A stretch of DNA of 35,410 nt from an uncultured Saprospiraceae bacterium (GTDB lineage Bacteria > Bacteroidota > Bacteroidia > Chitinophagales > Saprospiraceae). Below are positions 8,187 to 29,992 of this stretch, piece after piece; positions within the stretch are counted from its first letter, which is position 1, and the number at the start of each line of letters is the position of its first letter. The DNA lies in NCBI GenBank assembly GCA_938001865.1, contig CALLAW010000004.1, positions 1-35,410 on the forward strand, given 5' to 3'. Below the pieces are notes generated by a model, which did not search any database, was not told the origin of the DNA, and saw nothing but the letters and a program-made list of their open reading frames with translations. The translations under genes and the position numbers were made by a program.

Positions 8187-11100
8187 TTAGTTTGAAATAA
8201 GTAATTTTTGTAAGTCGCTGGTTTGAGTTGTATTCGTTTCTAGGTCTAAGAGTTCTATCTTGTAGAAGTAGACTCCTGGTAAGATATCACGCTTACCATG
8301 TGACCATTCTATATCAACCTCTCTAAAACCACTACTTGGCCTTATATATTGTAAGTTTTCTATATTTTTTCCTGACGAATCGAAGATATTTATCGTGACC
8401 TTTTGTTCTCCTAAAGTACCGATGTGTTCAAATGAAAAATATGTCCTTTCACTCGAGGGATTTGGGTAGTTGATGACATTGACCAAGGTCTCTAGGCTCC
8501 CATCACTCACTACAAAACTCAACTCTGCAGTACTGCTATTATTCAAGATGTCCCAGGCGATAAATTCCACAGTATGGAGTCCTAGATCTAGATTATTCAA
8601 TTGGTATCTCACTTCACCACTCTTATAGTCTCCGATATTACTGATGTAAAAGTCGTTGACGATATAGGATTGGTTATCGTCTTGATCAAGAGTTGCTTTG
8701 AGATCATGACCGATACTTGTATTGCTCAGGTTGATCCCATTCTCATCGGACAGCACAGCAAGTAATACTGGCTCACTATTGGTAATGCCACCATCTTTGA
8801 AGTGAGTATCATTCATGTAGAGATCGATGATTGGTCCTTCATTATCTGAGAGGTCGTCCTCCAGAGAACCACCAATGTTGTGAGCATACTGTCCGGCAGC
8901 GTCTTGCTCTTGAGAGTAATCTACTGCATAGAAGTAGAAGAGTCCCTTGCCTACCTCAAATTTGATATTCTTCGGTAATACAAAGTCAATGGTAAACTCT
9001 CCATTGACCACCTCTGCTTTGCCTCTGAATAGTAGTGTCGATCTAGAGTCAAATGTGTATTCGTTAGAGTCATTGTCATTGACTAGAGTCTTAATAGATG
9101 ATACCTTATCATAGAGTGTCACAAAGATCTCACCATTGAAGTCTGTCAAGATATCTTGATCCTTCACTACTTTACCACTGAGAGTACCAGTCTCTAAGGC
9201 TGATAAGAGAGTATCTAGATTGCTCTCTTCTAGTCCTATGCCATTGAGCTTTGTCGGGATGACTTGATACTTTGGTCTAGCAAGTCGCAGTGCTGGATCG
9301 CCAAGGATGATATACTTCCTTGAGTTTTCGAGGGTATTGTCAGAGGTGATAGAGTTCTTAGAGATATTGAGTGCTTCGCCAATCGTCCTGTCAGAGACCA
9401 CATTATCTAAGAGATTTTGCCATGACAGACTAGTCAACACTCTATTGCTACTCGTGAAGACTGATCTGACCGTAGTCAGTAAGGCTACTACTCCTCCATT
9501 GGGGTTAAGGATGGCATGCTCACCTGCTGAGACTATTCCTGGGTCATCATATCCAGCAAACGAACAAGTCGCAGTGATCATTACTGTCATCTTATCCATA
9601 TTGTCCCAACTCTGGATGTCATCCACTTGAAGGACTCTCTCTTGAGCCCAACCTTTGGGACCACCGTGCCCGAGGTAACATGTCACGAGTTGACCTCTCT
9701 GCACTCCATTAGTAATGGCTTCAGATGCCTCGGGATAGCGTTCGCCACCTGGAGTCGAGATTTGCTTATAAGCGTCAAAGAAGACCTTATTTTGATGGAG
9801 GTAGGGGGCATTTTCTTCGACTTCATCGGCGATGCCATTACTATCAGCGATGTGGAGTGTCCCGTTACCATCATCTGCAGCGAAGAGTACTTCAGTCCTC
9901 CAAGGCCCAAATCGATCTGGCGAAGTCTCATATGCTATTGTCTTGGTAACCATAGCCTCAGCATCTGACACTGTATTGACGGGAAATCTCCCTAAAGCGA
10001 TATCGAGATCTCCCTCTAAGAGCTCTTGTTCCTCTTCGCCTTCGTCATCATCTAGTAGTCCATAGTAGTCATCAGTAGGATAGGAGAGTATTGGATTGAG
10101 TGACTCTACTGTCTCATATACAGGGATGTAATTGTTAGGTTCTGCGAGGTCCCTGATATTTTGATAATCAAAACTGCCATCACCCATCAATATTGCATAC
10201 CTGAAGGCAGGATCTCTCTCATAGACCATCTTGAAGAAGTTGCGAATCGCCGAAGGATCAACCTTCCCTGCTGAGTATTCATTCCAGATGTCGCTAATCT
10301 CTACGATAGCTACCTCATATTCGTTGTGTAATCTTCGATGCTCAGCGAGTCTTTCTGCTTGGGATCTAAACTTGTCAGCGTAGACTATAATCAGATCAGC
10401 TCGATCTATTTGATGGAGATTTTGATTGTCTACTTGACCGACGATCACAGGCTTGAGTCCAATGCTATTCGGGTCAAATGCGACATAAGATCGACTCTCA
10501 CCAGCATTGTCATCTCTGAACGACAGCACGCCGTTAGAGACTGTGCTGGGTACTTCCATGATAGTGTGGTGGTCCGAGATGTTCCAGATAGTAAGGCTCG
10601 TCTCTGTATTGATCTCAAACCCTATAGTTGGATATGCATCCATCTCCTCATGCGTAAGGATAAGCGGCGTCGATTGATAGTTGATAGCGTGGGTACTACT
10701 CATCTCCAAGTAATTGAGCCAAAATGTTGATTCTGAATCACCATTAAATGGATAACTGATTTCAAGTGTATTATTAGTCTGAGCCAATGCTTGAAGAGAG
10801 ATTCTAGTATCGAGGGCATAGTTAGCATTATTATTGCTCAGAGACAGGCTGCCGATAGTTCTGCTTTGAGGTATTCCATTTGCCAAGAGTGTTACTACAG
10901 ATGGATTTTCTGACCGTGTAGCACCATCAAGCTTGATATTGAGAGGAGTATCAGTGATGATATCCTTCCAATCAAATTGACTGCTATAGGTCCTTGATCT
11001 TGTATTGTTAAAGGTGTCTCCGTACCATTCTCTACCACTTCCTTGATGACTACTGTGATCATCTAACAAGTTGATTTTGTTCTCTTCGAATCGCTGATAT

Positions 11101-11612
11101 TTAGTGTACTGATTGTAGATCTGCCCTCCTTGTGATATTGGAGTCATTGGAATTTCTAACCGCTGATTTGTGGATTTAAGGTAGTAATAGCTTTTATCAG
11201 AGTAAGGATTAAGGTCATAGTAGACACCATTATTCGGATCTGTCTTCCAGGTAGAGGCACCTTCGGCGTAGTAGAGGATATAGTCGTTTTGGTCCCAACT
11301 CCCATCATCTAGTCCACTTGTGTAAATGTGAAGTTGCCTCAGATCATCAACCGTCTCTGGATCAGAGTTGCCCTGAGGGAGTGTGCCTCCTTGGTGACCA
11401 TATACTCCTAGATTCGCTGCCTCAGATGCTGAGAGACCGAGCTCGTCGATCATACTCCTGTCTATCTTATGTATCCCCGACTGGCTCACACTCAGCTTAT
11501 AGATATCTCCCGATGAGAGTATAGATTGATTTGTATACTGGGCAGAGCCAGTGATACTCAAGGTAAATGCAAAGATCGAAGTCAAGAAGAGATTGATACG
11601 TGGCATAATCAA
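8187..11612 (-). CDS. porU: T9SS sortase PorU (C25 gingipain-family cysteine peptidase)
   Basis: At 1141 residues this has the length expected of PorU. It has a signal peptide (cleavage near GSAQ, about residue 25), a beta-rich N-terminal part, then the C25 peptidase domain at about 400-760. The expected catalytic dyad is visible: His649 in YLGHGGPKG and Cys683 in ITATCSFAG. MGDGSFDY near 476 and LGRFPV near 540 are further family motifs. The C-terminus (about 1045-1141) is a T9SS sorting-type domain with NYPNPSSERTYFSF and a GVYFYKIELL end. In this family PorU removes the sorting domain from cargo at the cell surface and joins the new end to lipopolysaccharide, while keeping its own domain. 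It is the first gene of a porU-porV operon. I see no TAnnTTTG box in the 148 bases upstream, which it shares with the divergent porP gene. Confidence 0.95.
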   Translation of the reverse strand: MIMPRINLFLTSIFAFTLSITGSAQYTNQSILSSGDIYKLSVSQSGIHKIDRSMIDELGLSASEAANLGVYGHQGGTLPQGNSDPETVDDLRQLHIYTSGLDDGSWDQNDYILYYAEGASTWKTDPNNGVYYDLNPYSDKSYYYLKSTNQRLEIPMTPISQGGQIYNQYTKYQRFEENKINLLDDHSSHQGSGREWYGDTFNNTRSRTYSSQFDWKDIITDTPLNIKLDGATRSENPSVVTLLANGIPQSRTIGSLSLSNNNANYALDTRISLQALAQTNNTLEISYPFNGDSESTFWLNYLEMSSTHAINYQSTPLILTHEEMDAYPTIGFEINTETSLTIWNISDHHTIMEVPSTVSNGVLSFRDDNAGESRSYVAFDPNSIGLKPVIVGQVDNQNLHQIDRADLIIVYADKFRSQAERLAEHRRLHNEYEVAIVEISDIWNEYSAGKVDPSAIRNFFKMVYERDPAFRYAILMGDGSFDYQNIRDLAEPNNYIPVYETVESLNPILSYPTDDYYGLLDDDEGEEEQELLEGDLDIALGRFPVNTVSDAEAMVTKTIAYETSPDRFGPWRTEVLFAADDGNGTLHIADSNGIADEVEENAPYLHQNKVFFDAYKQISTPGGERYPEASEAITNGVQRGQLVTCYLGHGGPKGWAQERVLQVDDIQSWDNMDKMTVMITATCSFAGYDDPGIVSAGEHAILNPNGGVVALLTTVRSVFTSSNRVLTSLSWQNLLDNVVSDRTIGEALNISKNSITSDNTLENSRKYIILGDPALRLARPKYQVIPTKLNGIGLEESNLDTLLSALETGTLSGKVVKDQDILTDFNGEIFVTLYDKVSSIKTLVNDNDSNEYTFDSRSTLLFRGKAEVVNGEFTIDFVLPKNIKFEVGKGLFYFYAVDYSQEQDAAGQYAHNIGGSLEDDLSDNEGPIIDLYMNDTHFKDGGITNSEPVLLAVLSDENGINLSNTSIGHDLKATLDQDDNQSYIVNDFYISNIGDYKSGEVRYQLNNLDLGLHTVEFIAWDILNNSSTAELSFVVSDGSLETLVNVINYPNPSSERTYFSFEHIGTLGEQKVTINIFDSSGKNIENLQYIRPSSGFREVDIEWSHGKRDILPGVYFYKIELLDLETNTTQTSDLQKLLISN

Positions 11613-23200: not shown

Positions 23201-23315
23201 AAAAGCGATGTGAATGTGTTAATTCTTTTTAGAGCAGGCAGCAATAGAGTTAATGTCACGTTATAATTGAAGCAGAACCTTATTACCTTAATCTAAAGGT
23301 CTGTAATTTAGGTCT

Positions 23316-23882
23316 ATGGAATTTACATTACAATATAATGTCACTGAAGAGCAGTTCATAGAAGCGTGTGCTAACTATGAGTCATGGGCTCAGAAGATAT
23401 TGTATGAGGAGCATTATGGTATGATGTTTCCTGTCTGTTGCAGATACGCAATAGATGAGGAACAAGCACTCGATATCCTCCACGATGGATTCATCAAAGT
23501 ATTCAAAAATATCAAACGATACAAGGTAGGGACGTCGATCGCTGCTTGGATCAGGACGATTATGGTGAATACTGCTATAGACCAATATCGGAAGAATACT
23601 AAGAGAAGGGTAGAGGAGATAGATACTGCCATAGGTGTCTGTGATCTATCACCCGACGTAGTCAGCGACTTATCTGCACAAGATGTCTTGATCTGTCTGC
23701 AACAACTCTCTCCTGGTTACTGTGCTGTCTTTAACCTCTATGTGATCGAAGGATACAACCATAGAGAGATCGGGGACAAGCTCGGGATTACTGAAAGTAC
23801 ATCTCGATCTAACCTCGTAAAGGCTAGGACAAAGTTGAAGTCAATCATAGCAAAGATGAATATCCAGAGATATGAAGGATAA
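23316..23882 (+). CDS. ECF-type RNA polymerase sigma factor
   Basis: A 188-residue sigma factor with only the sigma-2 and sigma-4 domains, as expected for the extracytoplasmic-function class. Sigma-2 (about 24-95) contains YAIDEEQALDILHDGFIKVF and WIRTIMVNTAIDQYRK, the core-binding and -10 recognition helices. Sigma-4 (about 122-180) contains LQQLSPGYCAVFNLYVIEGY and the HTH IGDKLGITESTSRSNLVKAR for -35 recognition. The stop codon overlaps the next gene by 11 bases, so the two are translationally coupled. That partner is predicted to be its membrane-bound anti-sigma factor, so this sigma factor probably answers an outer-membrane or envelope signal. No TAnnTTTG box precedes it; it may be autoregulated from a different promoter class. 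The targets are unknown. Confidence 0.93.
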   Translation: MEFTLQYNVTEEQFIEACANYESWAQKILYEEHYGMMFPVCCRYAIDEEQALDILHDGFIKVFKNIKRYKVGTSIAAWIRTIMVNTAIDQYRKNTKRRVEEIDTAIGVCDLSPDVVSDLSAQDVLICLQQLSPGYCAVFNLYVIEGYNHREIGDKLGITESTSRSNLVKARTKLKSIIAKMNIQRYEG

Positions 23883-25524
23883 GCAGTTTGATCATATCAT
23901 CCACGCCAAGCTAAGCTCGCTGAGAGCTAGTGACATCCAATCTGATTGGGAAGTACTCCAGTCTAAGATAGATTCGGATCTTCAGTCAGAAGCAGAGTTT
24001 GACTCATCCATCTCCGATAAATTGACCCAATTGTCCACAGCTGGGATATCATCTATTCCAGATTGGGAGACTTTTGCTCAGAAGTTGCATCAGACAGAAG
24101 AGTTTGATCTAAGAGTCAAGCAAAAACTTAATAACATCCCAGCTACGAAAGTATCTGAGCATTGGCTACTCCTCCAAGAGAGACTCCAAAAGATAAGAGA
24201 TCTCAAGGAATCCATCCTGAAACTCAAGTTTGGAGAGTCATTACTCATGATGAGTTTGCTTCTGTGTTTTGTCGGATTGTCGCAATACTGGTTGTCTCCA
24301 GATCTGCCTACAGACTATAAGCATGTGGCTCTATTATCTCAGTCTGAGAGAGGTGAGAGTATGCTGGTCAAGCCAAATAATGCCTCAAAAGATACGAAGC
24401 AAAGTCCGATAGTAGAGCAAGACATCTCGAGTCTTAACTCAAATGATCAGGTGACATCAACGCAAGTGGCAGTGAGACATCTCCCTCTCCATACCCAATC
24501 TCCTCAAGTAACCCAGAGTCGATCAGGAGTTACTGATACCTCACTCTCTACCACTGGTCGTAGCCAAATGGTGTCATTAGTCAGTAACTCTGACTCTAGG
24601 CAGATATCCGATAATGCAGCATTCAATGCTAAGGAGAGTAATACCAGCAATACTTATATCCACACTAAGAGTGATGATGGTCTAGATAATACTATTCAGT
24701 CAAGCACAATACCTTTACTTGCAAGTCAAGGACAGAGTAGCTCTAGCTCAATCGATAGGATAGATCGAAATCTACAAAGTATAAGTAGTACAGCTGTTGA
24801 TATGAGTAGTACTTATGCAAATCGCATGAGTATCATCAAAGATCAGAGTGAGACAAAATCGACTCCAGGAAGGTTTGCCATCCATACAATAGCAGGTGTA
24901 GGTATAGATCAGATAAATACTCCAGGCGATGAAGTTTTTGAATTTTCGGGATATCAGCATTATGCGAGTAACTCTGATGTAGGACTGAGACTCTCCTATG
25001 ATATTAAAGACTGGAGTATAGAGACAGGAATCTCATTATTACACAAGGGGTATAAGCCTAAGTATATCCAAGATACGATAAGAGTTCAGAATCAGGCCGT
25101 AGTCCAAAGCTTAGAATCTATTGACTTAGAGTTCGTATCAGTGCCTCTCACTATCAAGAGATCAATACCAATCAGAGAGAATCTGTCGATCTATGGGATG
25201 ATGGGTATCGAGTACCTCTATGTCTCAAGTGAGCAATACAATGTAGAAGAGAAAAGCACAGCGATAGGCGAAGTCGGCCAGGACTTAGAAGTCGTCGGTA
25301 TTATAGAGTACAAAGAAAATGCAAGGGTAGTAAATGATCACTCTATGAACTATACAGCTGGACTGGGACTAATCAAGTCGATAAATCCTCTCGTTGATAT
25401 CTATGGGCAGGCACTGTATCGTGGACAGTTCAACTCTACGACAGGGATCGGCCTCAATGAGGATAGATTCAACAGTCTAACTTTACAAGCTGGCTTCAAG
25501 TTGAGATTGTCCTCTAAGAATTAG
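23872..25524 (+). CDS. Predicted dual membrane-spanning anti-sigma factor (Dma-like): cytoplasmic repeats, TM, linker, beta-barrel
   Basis: A 550-residue protein with no N-terminal signal peptide. Residues 5-108 hold three copies of a helical unit with the pattern KL..L....I..DWE.L..KL (about 5-34, 42-72 and 78-106). Residues 121-141 form one transmembrane helix. Residues 145-330 are a Ser/Thr/Gln/Asn/Asp-rich linker, long enough to cross the periplasm. Residues 333-550 alternate like a small outer-membrane beta-barrel (IHTIAGVGIDQI, VPLTIKRSIPI, YGMMGIEYLYV, YTAGLGLIKSI). The chain ends in SSKN rather than the usual aromatic residue. The layout matches the Dma anti-sigma factors described in Bacteroides thetaiotaomicron, which link the outer membrane directly to an ECF sigma factor. 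The 11-base overlap with the sigma gene supports the pairing. Anti-sigma activity is inferred and not shown. Confidence 0.78.
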   Translation: MKDKQFDHIIHAKLSSLRASDIQSDWEVLQSKIDSDLQSEAEFDSSISDKLTQLSTAGISSIPDWETFAQKLHQTEEFDLRVKQKLNNIPATKVSEHWLLLQERLQKIRDLKESILKLKFGESLLMMSLLLCFVGLSQYWLSPDLPTDYKHVALLSQSERGESMLVKPNNASKDTKQSPIVEQDISSLNSNDQVTSTQVAVRHLPLHTQSPQVTQSRSGVTDTSLSTTGRSQMVSLVSNSDSRQISDNAAFNAKESNTSNTYIHTKSDDGLDNTIQSSTIPLLASQGQSSSSSIDRIDRNLQSISSTAVDMSSTYANRMSIIKDQSETKSTPGRFAIHTIAGVGIDQINTPGDEVFEFSGYQHYASNSDVGLRLSYDIKDWSIETGISLLHKGYKPKYIQDTIRVQNQAVVQSLESIDLEFVSVPLTIKRSIPIRENLSIYGMMGIEYLYVSSEQYNVEEKSTAIGEVGQDLEVVGIIEYKENARVVNDHSMNYTAGLGLIKSINPLVDIYGQALYRGQFNSTTGIGLNEDRFNSLTLQAGFKLRLSSKN

Positions 25525-28162: not shown

Positions 28163-28702
28163 TTACTCTTCACCGAAGTTAGTCGGTTCAGCTTCTGAGA
28201 GTACAAGAGGTATGATTGCATTGATTTCTTTCTTTCGATCTCTTGGTAAGAATTCGTAGCTTTTGTTATACTTCTTCTGTGACTCATCTTCTCTCAGCTC
28301 TCTGTACGCCGCTTTGAGCTCATTATAGACTTCTAAGTATGTCGAGTATTTGGTACCTCTATCATTCCTTAGAGAGATAATTGCTTTATCTGGTCTTTCT
28401 GCAAGGTCACTTTTGTTCTGTGGATTGCGGATAAAGTCCTTAGCTCGTTCTCTGAGATCACCTACATCTGTTGGTTCACCTCTTACGAGGAGTGCATTAT
28501 CTGCATTGACGAGTACTGAGAACACGTTTCTCTTATTGAGAGTCAATGTTTCTGGTTCGTCTTCAGACCAAGGCGGCAACTTGACGAGTACACCCTTATC
28601 TACATCTATCGTAGTAGTCACCAAGAAGAAGATCAATAGGAGGAAGGCTATATCAGCCATCGACCCAGCATTGATTTCATTATTTAACTTATCTCGTGCC
28701 AT
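28163..28702 (-). CDS. ExbD/TolR-family biopolymer transport protein (first copy)
   Basis: A 179-residue protein with an N-terminal transmembrane helix. The proton-coupling Asp is D17 in INAGSMADIAFLLLIFFLV. The periplasmic domain has the family pattern KLPPWSEDEPETLTLNKRNVFSVLVNADNALLVRGEP, quoted here as running from about residue 41 to 77. It then carries an additional charged segment (RELREDESQKKYNKSYEFL) that the other copy lacks. It is probably part of an ExbB5-ExbD2-type motor with its neighbours. It starts 7 bases after the upstream membrane-protein gene, consistent with one transcript. Confidence 0.9.
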   Translation of the reverse strand: MARDKLNNEINAGSMADIAFLLLIFFLVTTTIDVDKGVLVKLPPWSEDEPETLTLNKRNVFSVLVNADNALLVRGEPTDVGDLRERAKDFIRNPQNKSDLAERPDKAIISLRNDRGTKYSTYLEVYNELKAAYRELREDESQKKYNKSYEFLPRDRKKEINAIIPLVLSEAEPTNFGEE

Positions 28703-28709
28703 ACTTAGA

Positions 28710-29216
28710 TTATTTAAAGAGGTTTACGATTTCCATGACTACCATAGAGACTAGAGCGATGAGTGCTAGTATTGCTGTACACTTGATCCCTCCACTGATA
28801 AACTTGCTTACGCCATTACTTACGTTGAATTTCTCTGCGAGCAGACCGAGCTTACCAGAAGTCTCTGCAGCAGATGATGAATAGAGTAAGAAAAACAATC
28901 CGATAAGTACTACAGCGCCTATCAAGACGATCAACGAACCTTTAGGATTAGTCACTAATCTTCCCAGCCCGAAAAACAACCAAAGTCCACCAGCCAAAAA
29001 AGTCAATAATATAGGTAAGTAGATGGCAAGATTGAAGAAATTGAATCCGTCTCCACCACCATTTTTAAGCACACTATTCAGGTCAGACCCTGCCTCAAAT
29101 CCTGCTGCATTCATACCACTCACTGCAGTACCGAATACGATGGCAACAGTAATGATACCAAGCAGAAAGGCGAAAAGTTGACCTCGTTTTAAAAAGAAAT
29201 TATATATAGATGTCAT
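28710..29216 (-). CDS. Four-helix membrane protein between exbB and exbD, unknown function
   Basis: A 168-residue protein with about four transmembrane helices (roughly 13-33, 64-84, 90-112 and 142-165) and a short N-terminal basic segment (NFFLKRGQ). It is not a recognisable ExbB or ExbD: it lacks the Asp of ExbD and the ExbB pore-lining pattern. Its fixed place between exbB and two exbD genes suggests an accessory subunit or assembly factor of the proton-driven motor. Similar small membrane proteins at this place are, as I recall, common in Bacteroidota but unnamed. The spacing is 47 bases to exbB and 7 bases to exbD. Confidence 0.72.
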   Translation of the reverse strand: MTSIYNFFLKRGQLFAFLLGIITVAIVFGTAVSGMNAAGFEAGSDLNSVLKNGGGDGFNFFNLAIYLPILLTFLAGGLWLFFGLGRLVTNPKGSLIVLIGAVVLIGLFFLLYSSSAAETSGKLGLLAEKFNVSNGVSKFISGGIKCTAILALIALVSMVVMEIVNLFK

Positions 29217-29263
29217 AATATTAGGTATTTAGGTTTTGTAAATGAAATAAAAACATGTTGGAA

Positions 29264-29992
29264 TTACTTCCAGACACCGTTTCTAGACATTACTTCTACT
29301 AAGCCAATAGATGCATCTTCCATTTTGTTAACAATACCATCGATCTTAGAGATGATGTAATTGTAAAATATTTGTAAGATAATCGCTACTACAAGACCGA
29401 ATACCGTAGTCAATAAGGCTACCTTGATACCACCGGCAACGATTGATGGAGAGATATCTCCTACCGCCTCGATCTTATCGAATGCTCCAATCATACCGAT
29501 AACGGTACCCATAAACCCGAGCATCGGCGCAATAGCAATGAAGAGAGAGATCCATACAAGACCTTTCTCTAAGAGACCCATCTGCACAGAACCATATGAT
29601 ACGATTGCTTTCTCTACCGCTTCTGGGCCATTAGGTGCATTACGTAGACCTTCATATAAGATACTTGCTGTAGGGCCAGGAGTAGACCTTGCTACTTCTT
29701 TTGCACCTTCCAAGTCTCCTTCTGAGAGTCTTTCGTCTATTTTGCTGACTAATTTATCAGTGTTAGTCGTCGCGATATTAAGTGTGATGATTCTTTCGAT
29801 ACAGAATGCCAATCCGAGGATAAGACATACAAGTACAACACTCATGAACTCCCATCCACCTTCGATAAATTTCTCTTTCAATACCTGAAAGATTGATCCA
29901 GCTTCAGCAGTTTCAGCTTGAGCAAATAAGTCTAATGCTCCTACAGTTGATAGGACGCCTAATAACACAAATAAAACAAGTAATTTTCGCAT
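29264..29992 (-). CDS. ExbB/MotA/TolQ-family proton channel protein
   Basis: A 242-residue inner-membrane protein. A signal-like first helix (1-25) is followed by a periplasmic stretch and a transmembrane helix near 48-66, then a cytoplasmic loop and two helices near 140-165 and 185-212. The MotA/TolQ/ExbB signature is clear: PTASILYEGLRN near 106, IAIAPMLGFMGTVIGMIGAF near 152 and GGIKVALLTTVFGLVVAI near 185. ExbB forms the pentameric proton channel that surrounds ExbD helices and powers TonB-type transport. It is the first gene of a four-gene operon with a good promoter candidate at 30106-30137. Confidence 0.93.
   Translation of the reverse strand: MRKLLVLFVLLGVLSTVGALDLFAQAETAEAGSIFQVLKEKFIEGGWEFMSVVLVCLILGLAFCIERIITLNIATTNTDKLVSKIDERLSEGDLEGAKEVARSTPGPTASILYEGLRNAPNGPEAVEKAIVSYGSVQMGLLEKGLVWISLFIAIAPMLGFMGTVIGMIGAFDKIEAVGDISPSIVAGGIKVALLTTVFGLVVAIILQIFYNYIISKIDGIVNKMEDASIGLVEVMSRNGVWK

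What the first reader, a model, noticed from the sequence alone, without database searches (positions are those of the whole stretch)
23316..25524. ECF sigma factor coupled to a protein that seems to span both membranes
Seen: an ECF sigma gene overlaps by 11 bases a gene whose 550-residue product has no signal peptide, one transmembrane helix at 121-141, a polar linker of about 185 residues and a beta-barrel-like C-terminus. Known: dual membrane-spanning anti-sigma factors (Dma) in Bacteroides thetaiotaomicron have this layout and are reported to control outer-membrane vesiculation. Inference: this is a distant Dma system in a different Bacteroidota class, giving one-step signalling from the outer membrane to RNA polymerase with no TonB-dependent receptor.
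Basis: partly seen in the sequence, partly recalled or inferred. Interest (0 to 1): 0.82.

Follow-up and report, generated by a model that had tools for sequence, protein, structure and literature searches.

The report
Envelope-spanning sigma-factor control pair
This bacterium carries a gene switch next to a protein predicted to reach from the outer membrane through the inner one, probably to hold that switch until the cell envelope changes; the design is known from gut bacteria, but here the inner holding piece is repeated, and in some relatives the switch probably controls a wall-modifying enzyme.

Summary
An ECF sigma gene (23316-23882) overlaps by 11 bases a 550-residue protein with one transmembrane helix, a disordered tether and, by AlphaFold2, an OmpA-like barrel at 334-545 (PDB matches at Z 18). 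The sigma factor is in 93 of 100 family genomes sampled, and in 80 of 80 named loci a protein with the same kind of start follows it. The layout matches the Dma anti-sigma factors of Bacteroides in each layout feature I could test. Sigma binding, ECF21 membership and a vesiculation role were not shown; AlphaFold2 gave no confident docking (pTM 0.38).

New here: (1) the cytoplasmic part is a tandem array of a ~28-residue tryptophan-centred module, three copies in the window, 1 to 8 in 94 proteins, always before the helix. (2) The sigma gene has a conserved ECF-type promoter, GCAGC-N16/17-CGTT, in 67 of 80 upstream regions (shuffles at most 2). (3) The same site, spacing 17, precedes a peptidoglycan-type deacetylase gene in 15 of 36 family genomes read and 0 of 13 from other families, but in none of the four genomes of the window's genus. 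Likely an envelope-remodelling response; new variant of a known kind.

The parts
23238..23262 (+). Predicted autoregulatory ECF-type promoter, GCAGC-N16-CGTT, 53 nt before the sigma start codon
   Evidence: Site present in the window and its three congeners; GCAGC-N16/17-CGTT in 67 of 80 upstream regions, at most 2 of 80 in 100 dinucleotide shuffles
23316..23882 (+). ECF sigma factor, 188 aa
   Evidence: Pfam Sigma70_r2 and r4_2 over cut-off; 46-84% identical relatives
23872..25524 (+). [quoted passage not shown]
23887..23970 (+). Cytoplasmic module 1 (residues 6-33)
   Evidence: 18.9 bits against a profile built without the window and its congeners; best of 1000 shuffles 8.8
23998..24087 (+). 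Cytoplasmic module 2 (residues 43-72)
   Evidence: 10.6 bits, same test
24103..24186 (+). Cytoplasmic module 3 (residues 78-105)
   Evidence: 18.9 bits, same test
24223..24294 (+). Transmembrane helix (about residues 118-141)
   Evidence: hydropathy; AF2 helix 96-141, ten-residue pLDDT means 78-93 over 101-140
24295..24867 (+). Disordered polar tether (residues 142-332)
   Evidence: mostly pLDDT below 50; 45% S/T/N/Q
24868..25509 (+). OmpA-like beta-barrel (residues 333-546)
   Evidence: 1qjp Z 18.4, rmsd 2.4, 132 aligned; 4rlc Z 18.8, rmsd 2.2, 131 aligned; Pfam OMP_b-brl E 2.6e-4, below cut-off

Best explanation
The two genes form an autoregulated ECF sigma / trans-envelope anti-sigma pair that works like Dma. 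At rest the cytoplasmic module array holds the sigma factor at the inner membrane; the helix crosses that membrane, the disordered tether crosses the periplasm, and the C-terminal OmpA-like barrel sits in the outer membrane. A change at the barrel or in the envelope (signal unknown) releases the sigma factor, which transcribes its own operon from the GCAGC-N16/17-CGTT promoter and, in part of the family, a peptidoglycan-type CE4 deacetylase. Shown by computation: gene pairing, module array, helix, tether, barrel fold, conserved promoter, shared site at the deacetylase. Inferred: sequestration of sigma, a place in both membranes, sigma's use of this promoter, and the envelope role.
For: Sigma orthologue, one copy each, in 93 of 100 family genomes at E 1e-60 (82 of 88 of good quality). 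Module-bearing partner behind it in 80 of 80 named loci and 21 of 22 relatives' loci, the other cut. Barrel model and PDB matches; of 70 aligned partners 39 match OMP_b-brl_2 and 19 OMP_b-brl at E 0.001, overlap not shown. Modules occur only on the N side of the helix in 94 distinct proteins, and their number predicts the helix position (r 0.94, 44 residues per module). Promoter in 67 of 80 regions. Same site at the deacetylase in 15 of 36 family genomes read, all at spacing 17, and 0 of 13 from other families; none on the reverse strand and none in gene bodies of 29 loci, spacer identity 0.32. The deacetylase matches solved peptidoglycan GlcNAc deacetylases, best E 1.6e-25. In Phocaeicola, a pair of this build is induced by a toxin and its authors suggest envelope stress (PMC9308784, passages).
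Against: AlphaFold2 on sigma plus modules of the closest relative gave pTM 0.38 and module pLDDT 56-83: no confident complex. No evidence that one intact chain spans both membranes. 5 of 77 named partners have no hydrophobic stretch over the threshold used. The deacetylase site is absent in all four genomes of the window's genus and in 21 of 36 family genomes read, and 4 of the 15 positive genomes are those that led me to the gene, so 11 of 32 are independent. In the window's genome the pattern has 9 hits against 18 for the backward control, and only the sigma site convincingly precedes a gene. The deacetylase has no signal peptide that I can see by eye.
Confidence: 0.72

Rival explanations
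1. The protein is made as one chain but cut in the periplasm, so that the anti-sigma piece and the outer-membrane barrel are separate in the mature cell; signalling then runs by proteolysis, not by a continuous bridge.
For: The tether is long and disordered and the protein evolves fast; membrane anti-sigma factors are often activated by proteolysis (general knowledge; start of the abstract of PMC4183432 in the listing).
Against: The 76 full-length named partners are single ORFs of 447-814 aa; nothing here shows a cleavage site.
Confidence: 0.2
2. The 550-aa protein is not an anti-sigma factor but an activator or scaffold that delivers or stabilises the sigma factor at the membrane.
For: No predicted complex; the modules match no anti-sigma family in Pfam.
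Against: Gene order, overlap and one inner-membrane helix are typical of sigma/anti-sigma pairs; the similar Phocaeicola and Bacteroides proteins repress by genetics (PMC9308784, PMC13088901).
Confidence: 0.1
3. The shared promoter site at the deacetylase belongs to another sigma factor with the same specificity, and this sigma factor controls only itself.
For: The family has many sigma factors (23 Sigma70_r2 places in the window's genome, two of them proteins of about 290 aa). 21 of 36 family genomes read, the window's genus included, lack the site at their deacetylase although most have the sigma factor.
Against: Same two elements and same 17-base spacing as the sigma gene's own site in 59 of 80 regions and in all 15 deacetylase sites; none of 13 genomes of other families has it. 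In three separate samples of pattern hits only the sigma and deacetylase genes recurred.
Confidence: 0.18

Closest known systems
[quoted passage not shown] sections 3, 5, 11, first part of the references, and passages read)
   Same: ECF sigma gene adjacent; N-terminal cytoplasmic part, one membrane helix, long disordered tether, C-terminal barrel; Bacteroidota
   Different: Here the cytoplasmic part is a repeat array of 3 modules (1-8 in relatives); the recurring target is a deacetylase in part of the family; ECF21 membership, sigma binding and vesiculation untested; homology to the Bt sequences untested, so whether theirs hold the module is unknown
M0N98_03760/03761 pair of Phocaeicola vulgatus (PMC9308784; passages read)
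   Same: Anti-sigma factor predicted to span the periplasm with an outer-membrane barrel, sigma gene upstream, anti-sigma sequence poorly conserved
   Different: There mutants have longer O-antigen, and NigD-like genes rise under toxin treatment; here the only recurring target found is a CE4 deacetylase
Bacillus sigma-V/RsiV (PMC4183432; search listing only; link to wall modification recalled)
   Same: ECF system tied to peptidoglycan modification
   Different: No outer membrane and no barrel; lysozyme binding by the anti-sigma factor and proteolysis

Membership tests
Dma | One inner-membrane helix after a cytoplasmic N-terminal part | tested here: met
Dma | Long intrinsically disordered tether | tested here: met
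   mostly pLDDT below 50 over 148-320; composition
Dma | C-terminal beta-barrel domain | tested here: met
   AF2 and PDB matches
Dma | Cognate ECF sigma gene adjacent | tested here: met
Dma | The adjacent sigma belongs to group ECF21 | not testable with these tools
   no ECF group models held; of the 25 NCBIfam matches shown only the general sigma70-ECF model passes its cut-off
Dma | N-terminal domain binds and inhibits the sigma factor | tested here: inconclusive
   AF2 of the fused reading from L095: pTM 0.38, modules pLDDT 56-83, no control run
Dma | Sequence homology to Dma1-3 of B. thetaiotaomicron | not tested
Dma | Loss of the gene raises vesicle production | not testable with these tools
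   needs an experiment
FecR-type anti-sigma with TonB-dependent receptor | FecR domain in the anti-sigma factor | tested here: not met
   only two Pfam families at E up to 10, both barrels
Zinc-binding (ZAS) anti-sigma factors | Cys/His zinc motif in the cytoplasmic domain | tested here: not met
   no Cys in residues 1-117; no zinc-finger match in Pfam

The most novel reading that the evidence does not exclude
The tryptophan-centred module is the sigma-holding unit of a wide class of trans-envelope anti-sigma factors in Bacteroidota whose outer end is exchangeable: an outer-membrane barrel here, a PKD plus type IX secretion sorting domain in other families. In Saprospiraceae and another family of the class the unit is multiplied into an array that holds several sigma molecules, so that copy number sets the threshold and sharpness of an envelope-remodelling response.
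Probability: 0.3. Interest if true: 0.85.

Novelty: new variant of a known kind. Interest (0 to 1): 0.62.

Why it matters
It carries the one-protein outer-membrane-to-RNA-polymerase design from gut Bacteroides to an environmental family where it is near-universal in the genomes sampled. It supplies a concrete promoter and a first candidate target, so regulon and signal can be tested directly. Module numbers that change from 1 to 8 among relatives form a natural series for asking how an anti-sigma factor sets its threshold.

Tried and rejected
Vesiculation role: nothing bears on it. A wider regulon: in 60 genomes GCAGCA-N16-CGTTA gave 72 hits in the window's family, against 50 for the backward control (my sums from the table). 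I read 65 and left out 7: four copies of one repeat, two at sigma genes, one already seen. 47 of the 65 lie inside ORFs; of the 18 intergenic ones two precede sigma genes and four the deacetylase, and no other gene recurred. Two further samples, 30 hits of the longer list and 60 hits, gave 9 and 11 intergenic sites, again with only these two genes recurring. A promoter-like site before a 389-aa secreted protein in the window's genome (L183) is absent in three congeners: rejected. Natural sigma-partner fusions: two sigma hits with open frames over 600 aa (G338, G321) proved to be open only upstream of the sigma gene, with a separate partner behind. Naming the sigma group with NCBIfam failed. 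The first related-loci scan, with the 550-aa protein, found no relative. The first joint alignment A3 misplaced the partner rows and was dropped. Foldseek and VIA matches cover the barrel; the module region was not searched for a fold alone.

Limits of the counts. One search kept the best 80 of 572 relatives, so they are the nearest ones, and a few are close pairs (six pairs over 80% identical in the partner). The promoter pattern was chosen after looking at the regions; the spacing scan (8 to 25) is. Its 80 regions are the window and 79 of 80 loci; L109 had too little DNA. The module profile was seeded by a pattern that demands the W, from the sequences it then counts; one search repeats the test with the window and its congeners left out. 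The 94 proteins exclude five found twice and the three partners cut or masked. Alignment A2 used 69 of the 77 partners; seven with five or more modules and one cut by a contig end were left out. At the deacetylase, read 29 of the 30 best-matching loci; after the filing check I read 20 more, which showed that the less similar family members lack the site. G016 could not be read. For this I lowered the best explanation from 0.74 to 0.72 and raised the third rival from 0.15 to 0.18.

Full report
Window 23316-23882 encodes a 188-aa ECF sigma factor and 23872-25524 a 550-aa protein, overlapping by 11 bases. AlphaFold2 with 69 homologues gives helices between residues 5 and 141, mostly disorder (pLDDT under 50) over 148-320 and a barrel over 334-545. 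VIA-align puts the barrel on OprF (4rlc, Z 18.8, rmsd 2.2, 131 residues), OmpA (1qjp, Z 18.4, rmsd 2.4, 132 residues) and NspA (1p4t, Z 18.3).

The pair is widespread in its family. At E 1e-60 a profile of the sigma factor finds one match in each of 93 of 100 sampled genomes of the family, 82 of 88 among those of good quality; one of the seven misses, G012, has the gene's start at a contig end. The same profile brought 80 named loci, the best of 572, whose titles all name Bacteroidota, most of them Saprospiraceae. Behind the sigma gene, 77 have an ORF of at least 200 aa with two or more modules; in L139 it is masked in part, and in L113 and L138 it is cut by the contig end. The partner evolves fast: 23 of 60 genomes, the window's own included, match it at E 0.001, that is 23 of 37 in the family and none of 23 in other families of the order, while the sigma factor is 46-84% identical. 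SmpB lies downstream in 23 of 80 loci, as in the window. The nearest named loci are Saprospiraceae, in NCBI's class Saprospiria.

The cytoplasmic part is a repeat. A module of about 28 residues, consensus FDDIIKDKLENLEVPYNPSHWDLLEERL, with D in 93% of copies and W in effectively all (the seed pattern demanded the W), occurs at residues 6-33, 43-72 and 78-105. In 94 distinct proteins the counts are 1 (1 protein), 2 (46), 3 (31), 4 (9), 5 (3), 6 (1), 7 (1) and 8 (2), none behind the helix; module number and helix position correlate at 0.94, 44 residues per module. In proteins with three or more, inner modules of one protein are more alike (0.44) than inner modules of different proteins (0.28), and the last module is distinct, which points to tandem duplication within lineages. 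Three members of another family of the class (f22) also carry arrays. What the repetition does is open: several sigma molecules per protein, one sigma held by several modules, or reach.

The docking test was inconclusive. For L095, where the two genes are in frame, the sigma stop codon was read as glycine and the two parts were folded as one chain: pTM 0.38, modules at pLDDT 56-83, most of the two sigma domains above 90. The alignment had 8 paired rows of 57 and no control was run.

The promoter is clear. GCAGC-N17-CGTT stands before the sigma gene in 59 of 80 regions of up to 220 nt and N16 in 8 more; dinucleotide shuffles give a mean of 0.1 and at most 2 of 80. The window and its three congeners have N16, 52-53 nt before the start codon. 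In the window's genome the pattern has 9 hits (backward control 18), of which only this one convincingly precedes a gene.

The same site marks a second gene in part of the family. A polysaccharide deacetylase is in 59 of 60 genomes. In the 29 best-matching loci that could be read, the 350 nt upstream hold exact GCAGC-N17-CGTT in 15, none on the reverse strand, none in 650 nt of gene body, none at spacings 16 or 18, and 0 in 60 dinucleotide shuffles of the set. Spacers agree at only 0.32, so the two elements are kept while the rest drifts. Twenty further genomes, eight of the family and twelve of other families, have none. In all, 15 of 36 family genomes read have the exact site and 20 have it with at most one mismatch; 0 of 13 of other families and 0 of 4 of the window's genus have it exactly. 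Four of the 15 (G010, G019, G031, G032) led me to the gene, leaving 11 of 32 independent. The protein resembles peptidoglycan GlcNAc deacetylases, which suggests wall or envelope remodelling; substrate and compartment are untested.

Comparison with the known. The Dma definition used is that of PMC13088901: N-terminal anti-sigma domain, helix, disordered tether, barrel, adjacent ECF21 sigma. Layout features are met; binding is inconclusive, ECF21 and homology untested. I therefore say it works like Dma and do not claim family membership beyond the layout. In the library no paper holds all three of Saprospiraceae, ECF sigma and anti-sigma, and a search for repeats in anti-sigma factors showed nothing of this kind among 8 listed of 17; the 2024 Dma1 paper was not readable.

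Seven other ECF-type genes of the same genome, of 22 sigma loci examined, are followed by a 448-510 aa protein that looks alike, with one short N-terminal part before a helix (clear by hydropathy in six); four of these match a Pfam barrel family below its cut-off. Dma-like control may thus be common in this organism.

Noticed in passing
L245:1508-2779, L249:1731-3080, L251:1583-2926, L252:1561-2859, L254:1537-2775, L257:1792-3027, L260:2018-3133: Behind relatives of the sigma gene in other families of the class, 11 of 20 partners read look like this: short N-terminal part, one helix, PKD domains and a CHU_C type IX secretion signal domain. All 7 that I tested pass Pfam's CHU_C cut-off, and 6 of the 7 have one module match. 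This may be an anti-sigma factor with a T9SS sorting domain. No paper in the library holds three of the four terms searched; PorA of Porphyromonas, a T9SS-tail protein acting on an ECF pathway, is a loose precedent (PMC7712824, abstract and outline).
   Followed up: partly
L253:1602-2324, L258:1625-2356, L259:1547-2317, L262:1542-2300, L263:1610-2425: Other sigma relatives are followed by a 241-272 aa protein with one module and, in 3 of 5, a helix over the hydropathy threshold, but no evident outer domain.
   Followed up: no
L080, L081, L083, L086, L087, L092, L094 (window's genome): Seven further ECF-type genes each followed by a 448-510 aa protein, six with one clear helix near the N-terminus; four match a Pfam barrel family below its cut-off.
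   Followed up: partly
window 8187-11612 (-): 1141-aa protein with a Peptidase_C25 (gingipain-type) domain and a weak type IX secretion tail, below cut-off.
   Followed up: no
window 28163-29992 (-): ExbD (28163-28702) and MotA_ExbB (29264-29992) matches in one gene cluster near the pair.
   Followed up: no
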